A DNA stretch of 64,000 nt from Polytrichum commune (lineage: Eukaryota; Streptophyta; Polytrichopsida; Polytrichales; Polytrichaceae), in the NCBI GenBank assembly GCA_950295325.1, contig OX485806.1, positions 29,264,001 to 29,328,000 of the forward strand. The letters run 5' to 3'. Position numbers and translations under genes: made by a program. This document shows, piece by piece, positions 12,495 through 56,998 of the stretch. Below the pieces are notes generated by a model. The model searched no databases. It was not told the origin of the DNA and saw only the letters and a program-made list of their open reading frames with translations. The stretch's first letter is position 1; every line of letters begins with the position of its first letter.

Positions 12495-12566
12495 GCGTCC
12501 GTAGTCCAACGGTTAGGATAATTGCCTTCCAAGCAATAGACCCGGGTTCGACTCCCGGCGGACGCA
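12495..12566 (+). tRNA. tRNA-Gly (anticodon UCC)
   Basis: A 72-nt cloverleaf. The acceptor stem GCGTCCG (12,495-12,501) pairs with CGGACGC (12,559-12,565), with discriminator A at 12,566. The anticodon stem ATTGC/GCAAT encloses the 7-nt loop CTTCCAA with anticodon TCC at 12,528-12,530, reading glycine GGA and GGG codons. The T arm contains GGTTCGACTCC, the internal B box. No intron. T runs for pol III termination lie at 12,591-12,594 and 12,602-12,606. The sequence is of plant nuclear type. Confidence 0.97.
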
Positions 12567-14139
12567 CTCTCTTTCGAAAAAGTTCTTCAGTTTTGGGATT
12601 GTTTTTACCTAGATTGAGAGACTTCTGATTGCGCACTTTTAGTTAGTGGCACATTATTTTCTTGATTACATCAATAATTGGTTACCAATGCAAAGTTCCT
12701 TTGTCTCTGACTTCACAAGTTGCTTAAAACCTTACTGCTCGATGAAATTTCCAATTGAAGTTGCAGTGGGTGAGTTGAGGTTGGTTCTCATTAGAGGTCC
12801 GGGTCCAAGAAGTTTAAGTGCATAAACACCCTTAAATGGACCTTACATTCAAACTCAATATTGAACCCACACTTGAGGATTGGTTTCTCAAGGGAGGAAT
12901 ATTTTCATGAGATGAAACGAACACCAGGATTAGCACCATTCCACTTCTTCGTACCTTGGACCCAGACATAAGTATCGCTGCATGCGTTTGTGAACATCAC
13001 TTGTTCATAAGGATGACAATGCACAATGGAATTTTAATAAGGCTTGACAATATCACCACAGATCATTTTCACGTTCAAAAAGTCAGAAATTAGTTAGTTT
13101 CTTGTTGCAAGTTAGTGCAAAACTTAGATGGGTGGATGTTTAAAGTCAAATAGCACATATTCTGGCATTTCTGTTATATCAAAAACTTTGGGACTACTTT
13201 GTGGAAGGTTGTGAACCGTGAGCATCTTTTTCATTGGATAGGATTGCTAACCAAGAAATGCCTCCCATCTATGACACAATAATTTGAATCCTCAGAGTCT
13301 GTTTTGAAGCACAGCTCACTTCCCAAAACAAACGTCAAAATTTAAACTTCTTTCCTTGCAGAGAACCTACATAACCAAACATCATAAATTCTTGCAATCC
13401 ACAAAAACCAGTTGTCAAGTCTGTGCCTTTTGAAGACTTTGATTTCTTTGTAAGCCTCACCAAATAGATGATTTCAAATCCAACCTGGCAAGAATGGAAT
13501 ACAATGGTGATAGTATGTCCACAGACATACAATTTCCATCATCATAATTCCTTTCCACATGCTCAAGGTTTTCCATTTTGTATGGATACCAGTAAAACTA
13601 GTTTGTTGCACAAACAGACAGGAAACCACCTCCTGAAACATCCATTGAAATCTTTTTGCACATGTCATCATGCATAAATGACAAGTTTCAAAGATTCAAC
13701 TCTCCTTAAATAGATGCTTCAGAGAAAGCAGACAACTGAGAAGCTGTTGCTATCCGTTTTGCAATTTCTTTTCCTGCTCTTTGAGCAGTTCAGACCTAAG
13801 ACCACAACTACAAAACCTTGCAGTTTTACGCGATGATCGACCAAGTTGTCAAAGTTTTACACTAACTACATGTCCCACAAATAACTTACAAACTATTGTT
13901 GTTGACCCGAGAGTTCTTCGACCCAGAAAAGGTTAATAGGTCGATATCGGACTCGGGCTTCTTGAAATCACTCACTTGGAAAGCCTCCTTGAGATAAGAG
14001 ATAAATCTGGAGCTCAATGTTGGGTCACATGCACCATTTTTGGCAAATCATGTAGTTGAATTGGCACAAGTTACCCACTCGCATAGCTGAAAGCCGAAAG
14101 CCGAAAGTCGCAGGTCGAGACAGAAGTCGTTTGGAGAAA
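12567..14139. other. Intergenic and probable 3' UTR of the RLP4-like gene
   Basis: No tRNA or protein gene was recognised. The part next to 14,140, perhaps back to about 13,300, is a reasonable place for the 3' UTR of the minus-strand gene. No polyadenylation site was fixed. Confidence 0.35.
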
Positions 14140-32101: not shown

Positions 32102-33470
32102 GTTAGATGTGAACTTGAAATGTGTTGCAAAATGTGGACTAAAACGTGTGGTCAACATCTACGATGCCAGTTCTTTCAACTACTTAATTAATTAGAGCTA
32201 CTTCTTCGGTGCGCTATTTTGAGGAGGTATTCGTACAGCAAACTTACATCGAAGAGACAAAGGAACTTGACTTTTGATCGAGGTAGTAATTAATGAGGAC
32301 GAGGTGCCAAAAAGAAGTCGAGTTTAAATTATTGACTCTCTTTTGGAGAAGCTTCGGAGCAGTATCCTCCACATGTGGGAAAGTTTTTTTGGCAGGCAGC
32401 CTTTACACACAACCATCAAACATCATGTTGAGTGGGCAGCGTTTGGTGCACAACTACACCCCTCGATGCCTAATGAGAAGCCAAAAAGTGGTTGTGAGCC
32501 TTTCTCAAACACACTCGATTTTTTCTAGATGAAGTAATATTATCTATTATTTCTTTTTGTTGCACTCGGAGATAGTAAGAGTGTTGCCTAGTGAACATGG
32601 ATTTTATGGGTTGACTCAGATTTTTACCCCTGTTTCCACGTATCATTCGGTGGTTGTCTATGCTCATTTGGTTGATGCCTAAGCTTGTTAACTCAATTCG
32701 GTAAAAAATGTAACTTTTCTTGGCTTTCCGGTCATTTTCCCTAAGTTTTTATAAGTAGTCGGTTACAAAACTGACAAATAAAATAAGAACTCAGTTCACA
32801 TACTAAATTTAAGGTAATTTGGACATTTTTTCAACTTTGATTACTACATATGATAAAAAAAAATCATTTCAAATCATATTTTGAAAGAAATCAGAATTAT
32901 TCAAGTATGAAAACATGAAACCCTTAATAATACATGAAAACAACAACCAAAGACATCAAATAGACACTCAAAAATATGAAATCAGCAGCTTTAAACATTT
33001 GATAAACATTGCAAAACATTAAAATAGCACTTAACAAAGGGATGGCGATGATAGCTTTGGTGCAGTCTCGCTGCAGCACCGTAATTGTAAACCCTTAAAG
33101 ATAGTTAGAGATAGATGAAGGATTCAAGGTAAGGTGTGGGAGAACCAGTTATAACCGGAGATGCCCTCGAGCAACTCAACTAAGAACCAGTGGGAGATGG
33201 TGTGGGGCACCTAATATCCGCCCACTCTTGGATGGGAACGGATGAAAAACCGTCATCAACTTTACAAAAGCGGTCGATTTCCTATACACTTAATTTTTCC
33301 TTCAGTTATACGGCCTAAAATACTGAAATTAAACCGATAATTTATTGATTTCACTATGTTGATTTTACATTAAATGTCGGATCTCCCCATTCATTGGTGT
33401 TGCCACTCGTCCTTCGGAATTGGTCATGCCAAGAGCTTTTGTATCGGATTATTGGGGAGATCCGAGATGT
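32102..33470. other. Intergenic, no gene recognised
   Basis: The two overlapping ORFs at 32,293-32,532 have no known domain. The remainder is AT-rich and without recognisable repeats. Confidence 0.35.
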
Positions 33471-33472
33471 TA

Positions 33473-33971
33473 GGACCACTTCACACACGAGACTGAGAAC
33501 CCGTGATTGTTACACTTCAAGCACTCTCATTGGTGGAAAGGGCGGAGCCGGTCCAAGTTCGCTTCACACTACGCTTGAGGGACCAACTAAGTAAGTGAAT
33601 CCACAATGGATGCAAAGTCTACATGGATTCCTACATGGCATCGAATGGACCATGTTTCATGGTCACTTGGATTATTTTCAAAATCCATCTTTAGGAGGTA
33701 GGCCTAACATAAAACTGGGAGACCATGGCACTCTAAATGTTCACAACCGTTGATTTATTTTGTTTTATCGTGTGTGAGGACCAACATGAATATAAATTCA
33801 TTGAAATAGCATCTGGTTGCAGGTCCGGTCACATATGGCTTCACACTACGCTTGAGGGTCCGTGACTACACCACATGATGTTGGAGGTGTGTTGGGACGG
33901 CCTTTGGACACTATATATTGGGCTCTCACAATTTCATGGTCACGGCTCTTGGCTCGTGTGTGAAGTGGCCC
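33473..33971. mobile_element. MITE of the CACTTCACACACGAG group, 499 bp
   Basis: Left end GGACCACTTCACACACGAG; reverse complement of the right end GGGCCACTTCACACACGAG. TTA on the left and TTT on the right suggest a mutated target duplication. The same element occurs in reverse orientation at 40,102-40,599, sharing inner text such as 'cttgagggtccgtgac' and 'gggacggcctttgg'. Confidence 0.7.
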
Positions 33972-34439
33972 TTTGTGGTCTCAGTTCACTGCTCTACACC
34001 CCACCCGTTTATTGTGACCAGGTCTTTGTAGGTCAAGGATGGGGGTCCCTTTATTGGTCCCAACCAATGTCACATTACTATTCCCATGTCATTGCCACAC
34101 TACCGGAGGCCGTTTTGGTCATAAATTGGGCCGGAGAAATCCATTCAAGTGTCGGGGTTGTGGGTTTTCAAAATATGTGTTGGGAGGGTTTAGCTAGAGC
34201 GGCTCAATAGTGGGTCATACTTTCAATGGGTAATGACACCATATGCACCGAGGACACGTTGGGGACCCCAATAGGAATGCTCTAACATTCTACAACACTT
34301 CAAACAAATTGATTGAAATGATCTATAAACAATTTCTTTTGGTGGACCTTGAAGTAGTTGGAGTCTTAGTTTCTTCTTTGTTACAAAAAGCACTACCTAC
34401 TTGGAGAAAGCAACTTGAACAAGGTTATTGATATGAACA

Positions 34440-37680: not shown

Positions 37681-38060
37681 TTATGGTGTGTGGCCTTGTA
37701 GTGGGGACTTCCAACTCCGCATACTATTTGTGACCCTTGGAGCAAATCGGGAATTGTTTTATTTTGTTATCAATTGTGGAGCACACACCTTTCATTTTAA
37801 ATTTGTGAATAAAGTTGAGATGCAAAAAATAGAGGATGTCAAAGTGAAGACTGTCTTTCTCTTTCATTGATTGCATGGACCCTCCCAATTGTCTTCAATG
37901 TGGAACATGCAATGGTGTCTATATTAACTACAAGCCTTGCCACACACCACTCAAATATTAGGTGTCCGATTAAGAAGATTGATCACATAAGGTCCACATA
38001 TGTACCTTATTGGACATATTATAGTTGTGAAAGAAGTCACTTAAACCTGCAATATTGTTA
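37681..38060. repeat. Family C repeat
   Basis: Begins 'ggtgtgtggcct', then 'cttccaactcc', 'agttgagatgcaaa', 'ggatgtcaaagtgaagact', 'cctcccaattgt' and 'ccacacaccactcaaata'. It parallels 46,155-46,519 and 54,702-55,115 over about 380 bp. Noncoding. Confidence 0.55.
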
Positions 38061-40098: not shown

Positions 40099-40101
40099 CA
40101 A

Positions 40102-40599
40102 GGGCTGCTTCACACACGAGCCAAGAGCTGTGACCATGAAATGTGAGAGCCCAAAAGAAAATGTCCATAGGCCGTCCCAAGACACCTCCACAATCATGTA
40201 GTGTGGTCACGGACCCTCAAGTGTAGTGTGAAGTCATATGTGACCAGGCCCTCAACCAAATGCTATTTCAATGAATTTTTATTCATGCGAGTCCTCACAC
40301 ATGATAAAATAGAATGAATCAACGGTTGTGAGCATTCGGAGTGCCATGGTCTCATGGTTTTGCGTTAGGCCTATCACCAAGAGGTGGGTTTTGAAAATAG
40401 TCCAAGTGACCATTAAACATGATCCATTTGATGCCATTTAGGAACCCATGTAGACTTTACATCCATCTTGCATTCACATACTCCGTTGGTCCCTCAAGCA
40501 CACTGTGAAGCAAACTTGGACCGGCTTTGGCTTTTCCACCAATGAGTGTGCTTGAAGTGTAATGGTCACGGGCTCTCAGTCTCGTGTGTGAGGTGGCCC
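40102..40599. mobile_element. MITE of the CACTTCACACACGAG group, inverted copy
   Basis: Left end GGGCTGCTTCACACACGAG; reverse complement of the right end GGGCCACCTCACACACGAG. Flanks CAA (40,099-40,101) and TAA (40,600-40,602) look like a target duplication with one change. The inner sequence is the reverse complement of 33,473-33,971. Confidence 0.7.
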
Positions 40600-40602
40600 T
40601 AA

Positions 40603-42289
40603 GTAAAAGACTTGGGAATCCTACAATAAACAAACAACACTAGGCACCGTGTGGGTTGTTTGGATGCATGTTGCTAAACTCTTAACAGTCCAAGTTGACC
40701 ATTTTGGGCCTCCTGGTGTCATTTAGCAGCTTAAGATTGCCTCTTGATATTTTAAGTTGAAGTAGTGAAAAAATACATAACATTATTCAATTGACTATGT
40801 GCATTGGGTGGGGCCGGGAATAACTGAGATCCTATTCAAAATTACACTTTGTTTGTTTTTTCAACAGAGCAATGCACTAGCAGATTTAGGTTGAAAAACT
40901 TGGATGAAGCAATGTAATTATATTATTAGAATGGAACGGTTGATAACAGTTGAATCATGTTATGACACACCATATAGAACTGTTAAAAATACACGATGCA
41001 TCATTCCAACTCGAGCATACATATATGAATGATGAGGATAGTTGAGCTCGCCAAACTGACCTAGACTCACATCACAATTGTCACATATGACTTTATTTTT
41101 GTTTTCCTATGTGTTTAATAGGTTGTTAATTATGGAATTGATATCCTCAACGAACAAAATGTTGTTATGTTTTTTGTACAAATCATCTCATAAACATGCC
41201 CCATTAAGAGTTGAAATTGCTTTCCTAGATCTCATATACACGAGATATCCTCAAATAAAGTTGGAGTACTAGAGTATTTCTCAAAATGAGTCTGGCATGA
41301 CACTACTAAAAAGTGGTACCACAATATTTTTGAAAGTCAATGTAGTGCATGAACTTGACCATGTAGTAGGAACGTGACATCTTCTATGCCCATGGATAAA
41401 CATATTGCTCTATGAGTTGCCCCCCCCCCCCATCAATCTCACTCGAGGTGGAAAAAAAATCAAATATATTAGTTTTTTTGGGGGGGGTTTATAGCTAATA
41501 TGACTTTGGAACTAACATTAGATACATGTATCATTAAAATGACACCCGATTGAAATGAAATAACAACAAACCTATGGCTTTTGATTCACAACAACTATTA
41601 TGAAGGAGGGGGGATGTGATTGAATCCATCCCCTCCGAGATTTGTTGTTAATTCATTCCAATAAGATCCCACTAGATTAAACGAAGCTTAGTTCAAAGGA
41701 TCTTGTCAACTCATAATAGAAACATCAAAGTTGTGCAATGTTACTTTGCGTTCTCACCTCCCCCCTTGGTACACGGAGAAAGAGAGAGAATCATCGTATA
41801 CAAATGTACTTCTCATTCATCCAACATAAAACCCTAAAACACTACGCAACATGGAGGTTATTATTTTAAGTTGATTTGACACTAGAATTAACTTTAAAGA
41901 CCCCAAATTAGACTAATTGAAACCATTTGAAATGAATAAGCAGCAAACCTAGAGGAATCAAGTGTTTTCTTTTAAACATATTATTAAATTAATTTATATA
42001 TTTGGATGGATGAGAGGTACGCTCCTATACAATAATGCCCTATCTCTCCTTGGTACATAGGGGCCATTTAACTATACCTTGATTCTAGTGGACGCCCTTT
42101 ACTTTACCGTGGTGAGATTGTTGTGTGTGTCAATCTCAAAGAGCAAGACATCCCATCTACCTTATAGTATGATAGTGATTGGATCGACAAGTGACATTGG
42201 TTTTGTTTGTTGGCTTGATTGCTGAAAGTTTGGAGTTATCTAGATATGAGATGAGCCGTATCTTCTAGAATATTCCGTTCATATTAAGG
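40603..42289. other. Intergenic, AT-rich, no gene recognised
   Basis: Holds poly-C and poly-G runs near 41,421 and 41,481 and text shared with about 28,700-29,000. No coding or RNA gene was recognised. Confidence 0.35.
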
Positions 42290-46154: not shown

Positions 46155-46519
46155 AAGACATAAGGTGTGTGGCCCTACTGTGGACAATTCAAACTCCACA
46201 AACAATTTTGGCCGTTGGAAAGAATTGGTAATTGTATGAGTCTAGATAGCAATTGTGAAGCATGCATACTATCAATTCAAGTGTCAGAGTTGGGATTGTG
46301 ATGAAATAGTCATAGGAGATCAAAACGAAGATTCTCGTTACATTAACGTGATGACATACACCCTCTCAATTGTGTTCATAATTGAACCTAGAATGATTGA
46401 TATGTTTTGAACACATAGTTCAATTGAAGTCCAATCATATTGTATCACTCGTCTCTCTCATGTCCATTCAGAATATCCCACGTTCCACTAATCTTTCTGC
46501 ATGGACCCTCCCAATTGAA
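46155..46519. repeat. Family C repeat
   Basis: 'aaggtgtgtggccctact', 'acaattcaaactcc', 'agagttgggattgtgatgaa' and 'ggagatcaaaacgaag' parallel 37,681-38,060 and 54,702-55,115. The copy runs into the inverted repeat at 46,520, and part of it continues inside that repeat's loop. Confidence 0.5.
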
Positions 46520-47020
46520 GGCACAAATTAACATAAAATTTGAGCACAATGCCATTTGTTGGGGGGGGGGGGGGGGGTGAACACACTCTATTTTGGCATC
46601 AAATTGCATTTCAAATAACACATATCCCTCCGAAATTAAACATAGAGGTTTTCATATTAGATATACATGTGTGCTTAAAGGGTTGCCAAATTAACTCCGG
46701 ATTGATGGTCTAGAACCCTAAACCCTAGAAGACATTATATATTGCAAGTACATAGTCCAATCTCATCATAACACGTCTTCTTGATATTTGTCTGATGCTA
46801 CAAACCTTGCCATATGCGGCCCACATTTCTAGACCATCAATCCGGAGTTAATTTGGCAACCCTTTAAGCACACATGTATATCTAATATGAAAACCTCTAT
46901 GTTTAATTTCGGAGGGATATGTGTTATTTGAAATGCAATTTGATGCCAAAATAGAGTGTGTTCACCCCCCCCCCCCCCCAACAAATGGCATTGTGCTCAA
47001 ATTTTATGTTAATTTGTGCC
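46520..47020. repeat. Long inverted repeat: arms of 196 and 194 bp, 111-bp loop
   Basis: The left arm (46,520-46,715) and the reverse complement of the right arm (46,827-47,020) are identical base for base, except that a run of 17 G in the left arm corresponds to 15 C in the right. The loop (46,716-46,826) contains family C text ('agtccaatctcatcataaca'). Transcription in either direction would give a long, perfectly paired hairpin RNA. No TIR-type ends or target duplication flank it. Confidence 0.95.
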
Positions 47021-48118
47021 GAACCTGCTTTCGACTTACAGTATACGGATTCAATTATAGTTAATGAGTATTGATCACCTGCAAGTTGGGGCATCCAGTG
47101 GTTGTGAGTTGCAGCCATTCTCCTACAGATTCCTGGGCCTGTATGTCAGTGCATCTACTCATAAGCTTACAGGCCCAACTTGATACTCTTCAATTGCATC
47201 ATGCAAACAATGTAATAACAAGTATACTTGTCACCAGCATGGACTAAAATGCTACAAGATTTGTACACAACTCCAAGTTTCTGTGTGTAGTAGTCCTTTC
47301 TCAACACTAGACCACTTGTTTGATTTGACACTCTATATAGTGCAAACCCTACTGAAAGAAACCCTCCAATCCACAACCCCAGCTTGAACATAGTCGCAGA
47401 AAAACCCACTGCACAACAGAGCAGTAAAAGACTGAAATTAAATGTCTAGAATCTACACTTGCAGAGAAACAAAACACACGGGACAACTTAATTGCCCACC
47501 CACTCATCATCTCCTCAGCCAGAAGGGGGTCGAATTCCAATGGATATGAAATGTTTCATATACATATTCTTTGACAGATAGTCAGGTTCCTGGTACTAAG
47601 ATCAGTGTCTTCTTTGTGCACACTTAAAATGACTTCCCAAAGACTGAACAAAACTCAAGGCTGCTAAGGTATGTATAGGGTTTAGGCAAGCTTGATCAGT
47701 CTGTGGATGGCATATTATATACAGAACACCTCAAAACTACAAGGCAAAACTTGGTCTAGTGAAGCGTGGCAAAGCTGATCTTTGACCATACGGACTATAC
47801 TTGTTTGCTCATCAGCAGAATCAGCTGTTCCTGTACATGTAAAATTCTCTGGTGGATTCTGCTCCACCTTGAATGTGGTATCAGATTGATTGGAACCCAA
47901 GGACCTAAAGCTAACTGTTACCCAATATGGTATGGGTGAATTAAATGCATAGGGAAGTTCTACAGGTATGGCCATGGTGCTTTTCCATCACACAACTATA
48001 CTAGAAGTACCAGATTTGAGGCTAGGATTTCATACTGACCCTCGAAATGTGACAGGGTTGCAAGGAGGATAAATTTGTAAGAAATAAATAAGTGGGATCT
48101 ATTTTATTATTTGAAAGT
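47021..48118 (-). other. Region downstream of the SGR2-like gene, probable 3' UTR near 48.1 kb
   Basis: This follows the SGR2-like stop codon. An 86-codon minus-strand ORF at 47,715-47,975 and an 80-codon one at 47,167-47,409 have no recognised domain. They may be chance ORFs in a long 3' UTR. No polyadenylation site was fixed. Confidence 0.35.
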
Positions 48119-51100
48119 TTATACTGGTTTTCGATTGTATTTGTAATAGCTTTGCTGGATGAAAAAGGTGGAATCTTCATCACCATCATCCGAATCATCT
48201 TCTCTACTCACCGTGCGTACGGGGCTTTGAGGTACTGCTACTTTTGGAGTCTCAATATCTTCATCAATTGTCATGTTGAGAGGCTCCATTGTCACTCTCT
48301 CAGGTTCTGGCTCTTCAGGAATGTTACGATACAAATGTTTTAAGATAAAAAGGGCGGTGTCTTGGTCTTGCCAATATGACCTGCTCACCAAGCACTTGCA
48401 TTAGTCTAGAGTTGTTCGACTCCCTGAAAGGGCCCAGAGGACATTAAAATGGCTGGATTCTTTGCAACAAATTAAGCATACCAACAAAGTAAACAGATGA
48501 CATCTGTGCAAAGTAGTACAGTGCAGATCAAATTTAAACTACCACTCAAGGGTAAGACCTACGTGTGAGAGCTGATAGCAGAAATGTATTGATGCTCAAA
48601 TGTAGAGTCCTGCAAGTGAATGCAACAACCAATTGCTTGAATTAGTGCAGGTAATAAAAAGATATCTTGGAACAAGGTACACTACAATAAAATTATCCTT
48701 ATCTGATATTGTAATGAAGATATTGGGCATCTTGCACAACAGAATGAAGCTTTTGAATAGAGGCCCCTTGTCTGCATCTCCACAAACACATTACACTTGC
48801 AAGACACAACTAAGATGTGCAAAAATGACAAACCTGCAACATGCAGTCGATTCGACCATCTGAACTACCAGTGAGGCGCTCCATCACCAATTGTCCATAT
48901 GATTTGGGTTTCTCCCTATTCCTCTCCTTTTCCTCTTCATCTGACAACCACTTTTACTTTAGGAAGACAAGAAGCAACCCAAGGGAAATTACAATTTATT
49001 CACTGCTGTCTTGATCTCTGAAAGCCAGTTGATGAACTGATGCTGCACTGGTTTTGGACAACATCCATATGGAGAGAAAATGTAAATACTGACCTGTTAT
49101 CTCATCATCTTTCTTTGAAACAAATGCATGCGAAATTCGAGTCTGTCAAACAGAGAATTCACAAGTTCCATTACTAAAAATTGTCAACGTGTTTAGGTTT
49201 CCTGGAGGCAATCGCAAACAATAGTACATGTGTCCAGAAACTTAGCATATAACCAGTATGTATAAAACTCTGAAAAGAATATGTATGACTGAGATATACC
49301 CCAACTGCTCCAATGGAATCCACAATTGCCTTGGACTTCATGCTTAAATCCTCACTAAATTCCTGTGAACATGATGCAGGCAGATTTCCCATCAACACAT
49401 AAATAGCATATTTGATTATCAAATTGCAAATCAGATGGATAACACGAGATGTTTCAATCCCCACATGACATCAACAATCAACAAAGGTAAATGGTTGTCA
49501 TGCTGAACTGACATTACTCACCTTTGACTAAAATCAAGGTACAAGAAAACCTCTACACCTTGTGCGAAAGTGGGATGATCAGAGCAAAAAGCAAAGGAAA
49601 ACAACACTACATACATCAAACGATATCATCTAGAGGCATATTTTACATTGGATTAGCAAAACAGAGATCACTCAGATAGAAACTATTAGGTCATGACAAG
49701 CACAAACTAACCTGAAGTCCAATGTGCAAGCGTTTTCCTCCTTTGTGATAGGGAATGAACACTGGTCGTTTGCTAATATAATCTTTACAAACAAGTGGCT
49801 CAAGCCTGCACCACCATTCACCACGATCACCTCAGTTGCTGATACATTCTTCCCTTGAAGAGTGTGGACACAACAGAAAAATGCATGTACAGAATACGTT
49901 CCTCTAGGAAACTTGAATAATGGATATAATGCTCAAAGATTGTCATCTTCCTTAACAACAACCACTAATTTTATGCACGACTACGAGGATAGAGACTAAA
50001 GGCCTGACTTTGTGATAACATTTACTTACCGGTATGCAACTGGGTCATAGGGATGGAAAATGTTAAGCAGAAGGCGGCATGCTGGCATCTCCTCATCAAT
50101 GCCTTCATCTTGCCAATACTCCTTGCCTGATCCTGAACCAATGCGTATATTCCGAAGTGCTAAAAACATTCCGAGGGGGGAGCCAACTGCATAGAAAGTG
50201 TCAACCTGTCCCAACAGAGCAAACACCTTCAAGAAGTTAAATATGGACCAACTTACTTGAGGTAGTCAAGTACGCCTTGATCAGTTGGAATATGGGTCAC
50301 ACCTTGAATTTGAGTTTTGGATAAGTAATGAAAGATTTATGTTGTTTGCGCGAGCTGACAGAAGCTTCTAAATTTCCACGCACGGAGCTGAATTCGAGAT
50401 CTTGCTGAAGGTTTTTATATGAGGCACTTGGTCCCAAGTTGGGACGACTATCATCTTCTATAGTATCTGAAGGTTTAATTTCTTCAGCTGTACTTTGATC
50501 TTGTGAAGGACTCCCATCAGTTGCTTGACAGGTGTCGAACGGTCTTGCCACTTCTTCTGAGAATTCTTGCATCGACCTGCTCTCCAACAACCTGAGCTTC
50601 TCTTCTAGCAATGCAACCTGTAATACGCACAAGAAAACATATGTTACACATGAGCTTCATTTTAGTGAGACCTGCAAAAAGCGGCTTCAACCATCCACTT
50701 TGAAAGTTATAACTAGTTTTTTCCACTTATAGTTTACAAGAGTGTCTGCTTAATAATACCTTTGCCTTCAGCTTTTCCACCTCAGAAACCTCTTCATTGC
50801 CTGCGGCATTACTCTCTGCTCTTGTATTCCCAGAACTCACTTCTGCTTTCTCCATCTCTGTAATGGCAATATTCTCTGAGACATCTTGCTCTGACCTTTT
50901 TATAACCTCTGGAATAGCCTTCTCATTGTCTGCACTCTCAAGCTCTTGCAAAATCTCCTTTTCGTTTTCATTCTCAATTCCAGTCTCGACTTTCTCCTCG
51001 TCCTTCTCAAGAGCTTGAGCATCTGTCCCACTAACCTCCACCTCCTTTTCAGCCTCCTTATCTCCTATCTCGCTCATCTCATTTATGATCTCTGTGTCCT

Positions 51101-54100: not shown

Positions 54101-56998
54101 CAGCAAAAAGTAGACATCACTGGTGAATATCGATCAAAAGAATATACTTAGCCTCAAAAGTGCCTCTAGAAACAAATTGCGGGAACAATTAAGGTTGATA
54201 ATCAATCAGTCCTCAGGTTCTATTTGAAAACAAAACAGGGCATGCCTTTCATAGATGGAAAAGGTGTTGCATCTCCATATCTGAAAGGCGGGCATAGTGA
54301 GGGACAAACCTGTGAAGTGCCTGTAAGGTTTACGCGGTGCGCATATAGTCCTGATGGTTGAAAAGTCCGGCGACGCCAAACCTACTAGCACAATAATGGT
54401 GTCTTCAGTTTATGCTTATAGTCTCCATTGAAAATTAATCCAGCCAGAGTTCTCAACACTCTTATCAAATGTATTATTTCCCCATATGTAACCCATTTTT
54501 CCAAAAGCCTCTACAGATGCTGCAAAAATTACCTTCTTATGATAAGCAATCTCCAACTGCTCAGCAACGTCCTCCCGTAAAGGTAACCAATCAAGCCCAC
54601 CTTTCCTTACATACCAATGTCCTCGCAGGACTCGCCGATGTTCACCTCTCCAGTAGACTGGAATACATCTCCTTTGCATGAGATCAACCTGTATCAAGAA
54701 AATTGCAGTAAGGTGTGTGTGGCCCTATTGTGGACACTTCCAACTCCAAAGAAAATTTTAACCATTGGATTGAATTGGGAGTTGTGTCATCTGGTTAGCA
54801 ATTGCAAATCACACAGATGGTCATTTCAAATTCCAATAACAGAGTTGAAATGCACAAGTTATAGGAGGTCAAAGTGAAGACTCTCTTACTCTTTATATAA
54901 TCACACAGGCTCTTACTCTCCCAATTGTGTTAACTATTTAACCTAGAGTGTTGTCTATATTTTGAGCACATAGTCCAATCTCATTGTAACACTTGTCTCT
55001 TTGCTGTCCATTCTTAACTGCAAGCACCACCATATACCACTCAAATATAGGCATCCAAATAAGAAGAGCAACCACATAAGGCCCAAATACCTTACTTATT
55101 ACACATTTTCCCATGAGAAAGGAACAGGGGAATCATAATCTAAAAGACTTTATACAACAAGTATGGTTCCTTGAGAGTATGAAAATTGTTTCTCAGATGT
55201 ATCCCACATCTTTCAGCACAAGACAAACCTCATAAAGCCCACCCTTGACAAGCACACCCACGCTCTCGCCTTCATCAAAATCCAGGCTGTTACCAGCATA
55301 TGAGCCTCCCTGATCATTAGTTTCATTGAGAGGTTTCAAGTCTCCAATTGATCCCTCTCGATTCTGGCTGGATGAATTTACTGGGCCTTCACTAACTTCT
55401 GCATACTCTCTCCACCAAGCTGATACTAATTCTTCTTCTCTCTGCAGGCAAAACTTCACATGTCAAAATTGGATGCAAGTTGTAACCTTGCAATGATGGG
55501 ATGAAATTTGACATGCTGTAAGTCCTATATAAACCTAGATCTCTCATACCATGTTTTCACTTCTAAATGCAGGAATATAGGCTGACATTACAGAAAACTC
55601 TCATGAGAAAGGTAGTAAAGCTTAGACCAGGATGCAAACCTGTATGAATGCAGCCTCAAGTGCAAGAGAGTCGCGAACACTAAATCGAAAGTAATCACCT
55701 TTTCCCACCACCTCAGATGCTGGCACTTGGGCTGCAGCTTCTGCGCATCATCCAATTCATGACATTGCGTTCCAGATTAACCCTCAACCCTGCAAATTTT
55801 TGGACGCTAATCAACTTGTTGCAGAAAGAGTATCTCTCTATGTACTTATCTGCATGTGATCAAAGCAATTAAATTTATGATGACGTAAACCAAGACAACC
55901 TGAGCTGTTCTACCCTCAATTTGCATAGGAGGAGGTTCAGCTCTGGCCAGTCTTCAGTTTCTAGACGGTATGCTTCCTTATTTGTAAGTTTATGATGCCT
56001 TTTGCACAGAATAGTAAGAGTTTGGATGCAAGAACCCAAAACTCTATTTGGCACCATTCGCTAATTCAAAAAAAAAAATGATGATGGGCTTCATGAATTT
56101 AGGTTTCTCCAGCTCTTATTTGTGACAAAATATGAATCTAAAGATAGCTTCTGCGCATCATCCAATTCACAACATTGCAGTGTCCAGTTTGGCCCTTAAG
56201 CCTGTGAATTTTCCGACGCTAATCAACTTGTTGCAGAGCGTATCTGTCTATGCACTTTCTGGTGTGTGATCGGAGCAATAAAATTTTGATGACATAAACC
56301 AAGATAAGCTGTCTACCCTCAATTTGCATAAAAGGAGGTTCAGCTCTGGACAGTCTTCAGTCTCTGGATGGTGTTGCGATATTATTTGTAAGTCTAGGAT
56401 GCATTTTGCACAGGACGGTAAGAATTTAAATGCAAGAACCGGATTTCTTTTAGCCCCGTTTGCTTTATGAATTTAGGTTTGTCCAGCTCTTATTTGTCAG
56501 AAATGGGAATTTGGAAATACCGTGAGGTCGAAGTGGAGTTTTGCAGAAGTACCACCGAACATCAGCACCGTCAGAAGCACTATTTGTGCGCACACCATAC
56601 TTGGCAGCAGCGGCTGTCTGCTCCAATGAAGCCCTTGCGTTCACAGATGCAGGGGCCACCATCGCCTCTTCTCGCAGCTCGTCCTGCTTCACTTGCGCCT
56701 CAAGTGCAGCAAGTGACGAAGAATGAGAAGTAACTTGCTTTGCTTGTAGAGGCGAAGAAGAATTGGACAATTCAGAGCCTGGTACTACTGAGTAATCTCC
56801 AGCCACTTTCGGCACAAGGTGAGATTCGTAGCCTACGTAAGCATCCTTATTATTGCCTTCCGGGGAGGCGCGAAGGGGACTCTTGGGCGAACTACTTTTG
56901 ACGAGGGGAGACCGTTTGCCAGGGGATTTCTGCTGAGGTGATCTAGGCATTGATATGGATTTTGCTGGAGACCGAGGCACTCCATTTTCAGCCGCCAT
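48119..56998 (-). CDS. SGR2: SGR2-like DDHD-domain phospholipase (19 exons, 1,176 aa)
   Basis: Exons on the minus strand: 56521-56998, 55640-55740, 55229-55441, 54533-54688, 54310-54381, 53838-53984, 53096-53146, 52757-52927, 52469-52618, 52100-52165, 50760-51572, 50303-50617, 50030-50205, 49712-49805, 49300-49362, 49094-49142, 48834-48940, 48563-48609 and 48119-48380. They total 3,531 bp and close in frame. Order: an SP/K-rich N-terminus; DVRWYFCK (about 148); VMHGIG-type motif HGIGQ (about 417-421); lipase motif GHSLG with candidate nucleophile Ser542; a long acidic Glu/Ser-rich insert (about 562-790); then the DDHD region with candidate ligands Asp965 (YDPVAYR), Asp1070 (GRID), His1089 and Asp1097. 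The family is the phosphatidic-acid-preferring PLA1-like group; Arabidopsis SGR2 acts at the vacuolar membrane in shoot gravitropism. The protein is longer than SGR2 (about 930 aa), mainly through the acidic insert and N-terminus. Start ATG at 56,998 precedes MAAENGVPRSP. Confidence 0.93.
53261..53705. mobile_element. MITE inside intron 6 of the SGR2-like gene
   Basis: Left end GGGCCATTTTACACTATG; reverse complement of the right end GGGGCACTTTACACCAGAG. Flanks CAA (53,258-53,260) and TAA (53,706-53,708). It lies wholly within the intron between exons 53838-53984 and 53096-53146, leaving the splice sites untouched. It belongs to the TTA/TAA-flanked group that is frequent across the window. Confidence 0.65.
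54702..55115. repeat. Family C repeat in intron 3 of the SGR2-like gene
   Basis: Runs from 'aaggtgtgtgtggccctatt' to 'aagaagagcaaccacataag'. It fills most of the intron between exons 55229-55441 and 54533-54688. The best-preserved family C copy by length. Noncoding. Confidence 0.55.
55736..56505. repeat. Tandem duplication in intron 1 of the SGR2-like gene, units about 410 and 360 bp
   Basis: Unit A (about 55,736-56,130) and unit B (about 56,146-56,505) share 'agcttctgcgcatcatcca', 'cgctaatcaacttgttgcag', 'taccctcaatttgcata', 'ggaggttcagctctgg' and 'tccagctcttatttgt'. Unit A begins 5 bp inside exon 2, so unit B carries a copy of the exon 2 splice acceptor at 56,151. The copies have diverged by many substitutions, so the event is not recent. 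Confidence 0.85.

What the first reader, a model, noticed from the sequence alone, without database searches (positions are those of the whole stretch)
46520..47020. 196/194-bp inverted repeat with base-identical arms around a 111-bp loop
Reading both arms against each other, every base matches except the length of one homopolymer (17 G against 15 C). Surrounding repeats are old and diverged, so perfect arms imply a very recent inverted duplication, active gene conversion, or an assembly artefact. It has no TIR-element ends. If transcribed, for example as read-through from the convergent side of the SGR2-like gene, it would form a long perfect hairpin suited to Dicer-like processing, and the family C text in the loop would tie it to other loci including an SGR2 intron.
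Basis: seen in the sequence. Interest (0 to 1): 0.8.

Follow-up and report, generated by a model that had tools for sequence, protein, structure and literature searches.

The report
Fresh inverted copy beside plant gene
A 196-base stretch of plant DNA was probably copied backwards into an old repeat about 110 bases away, most likely during repair or replication, leaving a perfect hairpin; it is a tidy example of a known kind of mutation, with no evidence yet that it does anything.

Summary
Left arm 46520-46715 (196 bp), loop 46716-46826 (111 bp), right arm 46827-47020 (194 bp). The arms agree at all 179 sites outside one homopolymer, 17 G against 15 C. Searched alone, the arm matches nothing in the 408-Mb genome but the two arms, so a transposon family is unlikely. 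The loop supplied the key. The bases just left of the palindrome (46498-46519) and the loop are consecutive parts of one degraded copy of a very common ~330-bp repeat. With the left arm removed they align as one piece, positions 194-332, and four other genome copies run unbroken across that join. The left arm is therefore probably an insert; the right arm, next to unique DNA, is the likely template. Best explanation: one inverted templated insertion, by foldback priming at a break or a replication template switch. Zero substitutions bound the age only at roughly 0.6-1.2 million years or generations (rates recalled). Transcription, small RNAs and read support were not testable. The trans-silencing idea is weakened: the shared repeat lies in the loop, outside the long stem, and the arms have no other detected copy.

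The parts
46161..46469 (+). Complete copy C1 of dispersed repeat family C (model positions 1-297)
   Evidence: nhmmer 206.9 bits; 40 other matches listed in the genome search, 69-76% identity
46498..46519 (+). Left piece of a second, truncated C copy (C2), about positions 192-213
   Evidence: 46498-46517 is 20 of 20 identical to 37872-37891 inside a C copy; 18-base core present with <=4 substitutions in 16 of 20 fetched C loci L014-L033
46520..46715 (+). Left arm, inferred inverted copy inserted into C2
   Evidence: interrupts the C alignment; no other genome copy found
46561..46577 (+). 17-G tract in the left arm
46716..46826 (+). Loop, the remainder of C2 (about positions 222-330)
   Evidence: nhmmer with left arm removed, 50.6 bits, positions 194-332
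46725..46730 (+). CTAGAA, inverted match to TTCTAG at 46827-46832; possible foldback nucleation site
   Evidence: read from the sequence; role is speculation
46827..47020 (-). Right arm, inferred template (original)
   Evidence: continues into a unique flank
46965..46979 (+). 15-C tract in the right arm
46517..46519 (+). GAA at the outer edge of the left arm
46713..46715 (+). GAA at the inner edge of the left arm; possible priming microhomology
47021..47023 (+). GAA just outside the right arm; with 46517-46519 it could be read as a 3-bp target duplication
47021..47700 (+). Unique right flank
   Evidence: query 47000-47700 matches only itself in the genome at E<=0.001
48119..50265 (-). DDHD-domain part of the SGR2-like gene; the segment matching the end of the DDHD profile runs to a stop at 48119, about 1.1 kb from the palindrome. 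The gene probably reaches further, to about 55.4 kb, by my reading of the frames (recalled resemblance, no Pfam match)
   Evidence: Pfam DDHD E 7.2e-19 in 50029-50265; pieces below Pfam's cut-off at 49694-49831 (E 0.0021) and 48122-48400 (E 0.0099)

Best explanation
It is a short-range inverted templated insertion. A break or stalled fork occurred inside the truncated C2 repeat copy, between C positions about 213 and 222. The right-hand end folded back, or the nascent strand switched template. It copied the unique segment now seen as the right arm (46827-47020), and the new strand was joined to the left-hand end. The result is left arm (copy), loop (C2 remainder), right arm (template). GAA at the inner edge may be the priming microhomology. 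Shown: identical arms, an arm with no other copy found, and continuity of the left flank with the loop once the left arm is removed. Inferred: that the right arm was the template, that one event did it, and whether it was break repair or replication. If transcribed, the arms would give a perfect duplex of about 195 bp, a plausible Dicer-like substrate acting mainly on its own locus; nothing here shows that it is.
For: Arms identical at 179 of 179 sites outside the homopolymer. At E<=10 the arm matches only the two arms, while C copies at 69-76% identity are found by the same tool. 46498-46517 is C position about 192-211. The left-arm-removed join aligns to the C model as one stretch, 194-332, 50.6 bits against 44.6 for loop plus right arm. 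Only 29 of 5000 random 50-mers from the window did as well in place of the left flank. In the genome search with the join (40 candidates scored), 4 of 39 non-self matches cross it; base by base they run on without an insert, ours being about 4 bp shorter there. Yeast precedent: foldback insertions at breaks, 10 to over 150 bp, 41-nt loop (PMC11724301, abstract and two sections read). Template switching is proposed to make perfect hairpins (PMC8794818, abstract and discussion read).
Against: The C2 continuity adds only about 6 bits to a match that the loop already makes alone; the 50-bp left flank by itself gives no reported match to the C model, and by position and strand alone continuity would occur by chance about 4% of the time. 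The native order also gives a very weak C alignment (2.1-2.6 bits, 46500-46549) that runs from the flank into the first 30 bases of the left arm with a 12-bp gap; if real it would favour the left arm being native. The direction right-to-left is not proven: the left arm could have come from elsewhere first and then served as template. The microhomology is only 3 bp. 196 bp is long for a foldback insertion: in the yeast study most were under 14 bp. No relative or second haplotype was available to show an empty site. The right arm begins where the C unit ends, a coincidence not explained.
Confidence: 0.7

Rival explanations
1. A single-copy MITE or foldback transposon of 501 bp with 196-bp terminal inverted repeats and a 3-bp GAA target duplication.
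For: GAA lies at both outer ends; long near-perfect TIRs occur in some plant MITEs and CACTA-type elements make 3-bp duplications of any sequence (both recalled); a review gives 2-9 bp A-T rich target duplications for MITEs (PMC12595863, passages read).
Against: No second copy of the arm found. The loop continues the flanking C copy, so it does not look like element-internal sequence. GAA fits neither TA nor TWA, the ends GGCAC are not CACTA-like (recalled), and a 3-bp match at a given junction has 1/64 chance.
Confidence: 0.11
2. Older inverted duplication kept identical by gene conversion or hairpin-templated correction between the arms.
For: Identical arms 111 bp apart are a plausible substrate for such correction; the homopolymer difference shows that the arms can differ.
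Against: Not needed: 0 changes in 179 sites is compatible with simple youth. The inverted alignment ends exactly at 46520/47020 with no diverged shoulder reported; weak shoulders were not sought specially.
Confidence: 0.1
3. Assembly or sequencing artefact (chimeric palindromic read).
For: No reads could be mapped; long G/C tracts are error-prone (recalled).
Against: The arm sits inside C2 with ordered flanks on both sides, so an artefact would have to splice 196 bp into one exact site. Homopolymer lengths differ. G/C tracts of 12 or more are common in this assembly, 8 in 160 kb. Palindromic-read chimeras normally lack a retained loop and separate flanks (recalled).
Confidence: 0.05
4. A working hairpin-RNA locus (24-nt or 21-22-nt siRNA source, proto-MIRNA) retained for regulating the SGR2-like gene. 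This concerns function and could hold together with any real origin above.
For: Strong fold; lies about 1.1 kb past the segment with the end of the DDHD domain. A review reports that about 486 of 634 gene-proximal Arabidopsis inverted repeats give 24-nt siRNAs (PMC12595863 section 11 read, citing Arce et al. 2023, not read).
Against: No transcript or small-RNA data. The left arm matches nothing else in the window by more than 13 exact bases and nothing else in the genome at E<=10 (matches of 21-24 nt alone might escape that search). No Rfam family reaches its gathering score there.
Confidence: 0.12

Closest known systems
Local foldback inversions / inverted templated insertions at double-strand breaks (yeast, Yu et al. 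2024, PMC11724301; abstract and two sections read)
   Same: Inverted copy of nearby DNA inserted at one point, original retained, loop between, short microhomology.
   Different: Here 196 bp with a 111-nt loop and 3-bp microhomology, in a plant genome and inferred after the fact; in the yeast assay 10 to over 150 bp, most under 14 bp, 41-nt loop, imperfect 10-bp microhomology.
Template switch mutations creating perfect hairpins (Monttinen and Loytynoja 2022, PMC8794818; abstract and discussion read)
   Same: One event creates a perfect stem.
   Different: The largest pattern mentioned in that discussion is 59 bp and failed their quality control; events there are inferred from reconstructed ancestors. 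Here 196 bp, inferred from paralogous repeat copies within one genome.
Gene-proximal inverted repeats of Arabidopsis (Arce et al. 2023, seen only through the review PMC12595863) and IR71/IR2039 (passages of PMC5910406)
   Same: Inverted repeat within 3 kb of a gene, able to fold.
   Different: About 68% of those are attributed to transposons; small RNAs are known there and unknown here.
Inverted duplication model of MIRNA birth (PMC3237417, title and abstract opening in a search listing only; Allen et al. 2004 recalled)
   Same: Young perfect hairpin from an inverted duplication.
   Different: The arms here have no detected source gene in the genome, so there is no ready-made target.

Membership tests
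Inverted templated insertion (foldback or template switch) | Inverted copy identical or nearly so to a nearby source | tested here: met
   179 of 179 sites, 111 bp apart
Inverted templated insertion (foldback or template switch) | One arm interrupts a sequence that is otherwise contiguous | tested here: met
   C2 alignment 194-332 with left arm removed; 4 of 39 non-self genome matches cross the join; gain about 6 bits, matched by 29 of 5000 random flanks
Inverted templated insertion (foldback or template switch) | Microhomology at a junction | tested here: inconclusive
   GAA, 3 bp, chance 1/64 at a given junction
Inverted templated insertion (foldback or template switch) | Empty allele or relative with the template alone | not testable with these tools
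   No relative or second haplotype held; each flank has one full-identity copy
MITE / foldback transposon | Several copies at unlinked sites | tested here: not met
   Arm has no other match at E<=10; the 36 non-self matches of the full element lie within query 205-309, essentially the loop
MITE / foldback transposon | Target-site duplication at the outer ends | tested here: inconclusive
   GAA at both ends, 3 bp only
MITE / foldback transposon | Interior belongs to the element, not to the flank | tested here: not met
   Loop continues the left-flank C copy
hpRNA / siRNA or MIRNA locus | Long stable stem | tested here: met
   -367.7 and -382.5 kcal/mol
hpRNA / siRNA or MIRNA locus | Transcript and 21-24-nt small RNAs | not testable with these tools
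   No RNA data
hpRNA / siRNA or MIRNA locus | Stem sequence matching a target elsewhere | tested here: inconclusive
   No other genome match at E<=10 and at most 13 exact bases to the rest of the window, but matches of 21-24 nt elsewhere in the genome might escape that search

The most novel reading that the evidence does not exclude
A newborn hairpin-RNA locus caught before any divergence: one foldback event of almost 200 bp made a perfect long duplex precursor from unique DNA downstream of an SGR2-like gene. That would show that plants can gain siRNA or proto-MIRNA loci without a transposon or a gene duplication.
Probability: 0.12. Interest if true: 0.5.

Novelty: new member of a known kind. 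Interest (0 to 1): 0.32.

Why it matters
It is a clean natural example of an inverted templated insertion in a plant, polarised by the old repeat that it interrupts. Paralogous repeat copies can serve as empty-site controls when no relative is at hand. If the hairpin is transcribed it would be a test case for how perfect hairpin loci are born without transposons.

Tried and rejected
Tandem-register reading: C position 225 recurs 337 bp apart in C1 and the loop (my arithmetic), close to the 328-bp period of the tandem C array in L004, which first suggested a replaced tandem unit. Rejected because 46498-46517 is C position about 192-211, so C2 is truncated and the spacing without the left arm is about 141 bp.

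Arm as a degenerate C unit: nhmmer finds only 2.1-2.6 bits at 46500-46549, carried, as I read it, mainly by the 20 bp outside the arm. Rejected, but counted as weak evidence against in Best explanation.

Whole-element removal: left flank plus right flank gives no C match. This is not independent support, since the left flank alone gives none either.

Second example: the perfect 62-bp inverted repeat in L002:1755-1900 looked like a parallel case beside C. A palindrome in L046 shares 22 of 24 bases of its arm, which points to a MITE-like element, so it was not used as a parallel; this rests on two loci.

MIR1520: a 28-bit match at 46376-46497 (gathering 53, E 0.21) was not repeated in any of 20 other C loci and is treated as chance.

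Extra GAA in the join: including the inner GAA as native C2 sequence scored slightly lower (48.1 against 49.2; 49.7 with neither), so it does not settle where the break lay.

Coding in the arms: frames were listed but not scanned against Pfam. Of ten neighbouring segments scanned, one passed Pfam's cut-off (DDHD); two more DDHD rows and three rows of other families were below it; four segments had no row. Polyadenylation-like signals on the minus strand from the stop to 46400: none canonical, AATAAT at 48111 and ATTAAA at 46907; not informative in plants. Paper searches that gave nothing useful: none; one great-ape paper; one unrelated paper. Confidence in the best explanation was lowered from 0.72 to 0.70 on checking, because the left-flank-plus-right-flank control is not independent.

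Full report
OBSERVATION. The palindrome is as described: arms 46520-46715 and 46827-47020, loop 46716-46826, with 17 G at 46561-46577 against 15 C at 46965-46979. All 179 aligned positions outside the tract are identical. Folded as RNA it gives -367.7 kcal/mol on + and -382.5 on -, z -37.5 and -44.7, with 0 of 100 shuffles as stable in each case. In 16 pieces of 10 kb taken at round positions over the seven long contigs, no exact inverted pair of 25 nt or more with spacer up to 2 kb was found (two of 22 and 24 nt). The 14 inverted pairs of 50 bp or more within 2 kb were 66-88% identical. So it is rare at this sampling depth, but 160 kb only bounds the rate at about one per 50 kb, and among loci fetched for other reasons L002 holds a perfect pair with 62-nt arms and L004 one with 32-nt arms.

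PLACE. The window is C4:29264001-29328000 of a 408-Mb assembly with 64 contigs, seven of them 42-78 Mb long. To the right lies a DDHD-domain (SGR2-like) gene on the minus strand: DDHD E 7.2e-19 in 50029-50265, with pieces below Pfam's cut-off at 49694-49831 and at 48122-48400, the last matching the end of the DDHD profile and running to a stop at 48119. The palindrome thus lies about 1.1 kb downstream of the apparent stop.

COPY NUMBER. Searched alone at E<=10, the left arm matches only itself and the right arm. The right flank 47000-47700 matches only itself at E<=0.001. So the flank and the loop belong to one old dispersed family and the arms do not. The tool warns that it can miss diverged or common sequence.

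THE REPEAT AS A RULER. A profile of C built from 35 copies has 300-odd positions. It places a full copy C1 at 46161-46469 (positions 1-297) and part of a second copy in the loop, 46723-46791 (positions 225-295). Between C1 and the palindrome, 46498-46517 is identical over 20 of 20 bases to a stretch inside the C copy at 37685-37925. Its 18-base core recurs with up to 4 substitutions in 16 of the 20 fetched C loci L014-L033, at C position 188-205 by my arithmetic; it also appears, with 4 substitutions, in 2 of the 16 random 10-kb pieces. So the left flank stops at C position about 211-213 and the loop resumes at about 222. With the left arm cut out, flank, loop and what follows align to an extended C model (27 copies, 370 positions) as one stretch, 194-332, at 50.6 bits; loop plus right arm gives 44.6. 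The left flank alone (50 bp), and left flank plus right flank, give no reported match, so the second of these is not independent support. As a control, 5000 random 50-mers from the window were put in place of the flank: 29 scored as well or better. That pool includes the window's own C copies, so the test is conservative. Searching the genome with the 156-base join (40 candidates scored), 4 of 39 non-self matches cross the join. Fetched and aligned, all four continue through it with no insert; ours is about 4 bp shorter there than three of them, with a like-sized gap nearby in the fourth. The other 35 start inside the loop part (query 39 or later). If a second C fragment had a random start and strand, continuity within the range seen would arise about 4% of the time, so this is good but not overwhelming evidence. 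One result points weakly the other way: in the native order a 2.1-2.6-bit C alignment runs from the flank 30 bases into the left arm with a 12-bp gap.

READING. The left arm is most simply an insert in an old C copy. The right arm joins unique DNA and is the natural template. One inverted copying event over about 110 bp explains arms, loop and flanks. In foldback terms, the right-hand broken end carries the loop strand; its 3' end pairs with a site at the inner edge of the right arm, is extended about 190 bases, unpairs and is joined to the left-hand end. GAA at 46517-46519 and again at 46713-46715 can be a 3-bp priming match or a 3-bp target duplication; the scores do not decide. A six-base inverted match CTAGAA (46725-46730) / TTCTAG (46827-46832) near the join could have helped the foldback, but the product does not join there, so this is speculation. 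Replication template switching gives the same product and cannot be told apart.

AGE. With 0 changes in 179 sites, the 95% upper bound is 1.2 million generations at 7e-9 per site per generation or 0.56 million at 1.5e-8 (both rates recalled). The two-base homopolymer difference may be mutation or sequencing error. Conversion between the arms cannot be excluded.

FUNCTION. None is shown. Were it transcribed, the duplex would be a good Dicer-like substrate. A review reports about 486 of 634 gene-proximal inverted repeats of Arabidopsis yielding 24-nt siRNAs (PMC12595863, section 11 read; the primary paper not read), so self-directed 24-nt siRNAs are a fair expectation. Action on other loci is not supported: the stem has no other genome match at E<=10 (matches of 21-24 nt alone might escape that search) and no exact match over 13 bases elsewhere in the window. 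The loop shares 17 exact bases with the C copy near 54.7-55.0 kb and 25, read from the alignment, with one distant copy, L053, but it lies outside the long stem.

LITERATURE. Local foldback insertions at breaks are documented in yeast (PMC11724301: abstract and two sections). Larger foldback-primed inverted duplications are described in PMC10622511 (abstract and outline only). Template switching as a maker of perfect hairpins is in PMC8794818 (abstract and discussion). The paper searches that could have shown plant cases of this mechanism listed none that I recognised as such; only titles and abstract openings were seen, 12 of 23 papers, so this is not a claim that none is in print.

VERDICT. 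A real and well-formed structure as far as the assembly shows, most likely one inverted templated insertion: a new instance of a known kind. Interest is modest.

Noticed in passing
L002:1755-1900 and L046:9843-9998: A perfect 62-bp inverted repeat with a 22-nt loop in L002, and in L046 a palindrome whose own arms are 82% identical and which shares 22 of 24 bases of the L002 arm: probably a MITE-like family, one copy with identical arms.
   Followed up: partly
L004:819-1815: Three tandem units of family C with a 328-bp period, 89% matches: the dispersed repeat also occurs as short tandem arrays.
   Followed up: partly
L039, L040, L042, L044, L046, L047, L049; window 41420-41431: G or C runs of 12 or more are common in this genome: 8 in 160 kb of sampled sequence.
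   Followed up: no
window 33470-33973 and 40100-40602: A 504-bp inverted pair at 86% identity about 6 kb apart, more alike than the other inverted pairs over 100 bp in the window apart from the palindrome.
   Followed up: no
window 54715-55016: A nearly full copy of family C (positions 5-300, 263.7 bits), probably inside the SGR2-like gene (gene extent recalled, not shown by Pfam).
   Followed up: no
window 12495-12567: tRNA-Gly (TCC) gene.
   Followed up: no
window 46826-46832: The inner end of the right arm coincides within a few bases with the end of the C unit; unexplained.
   Followed up: no
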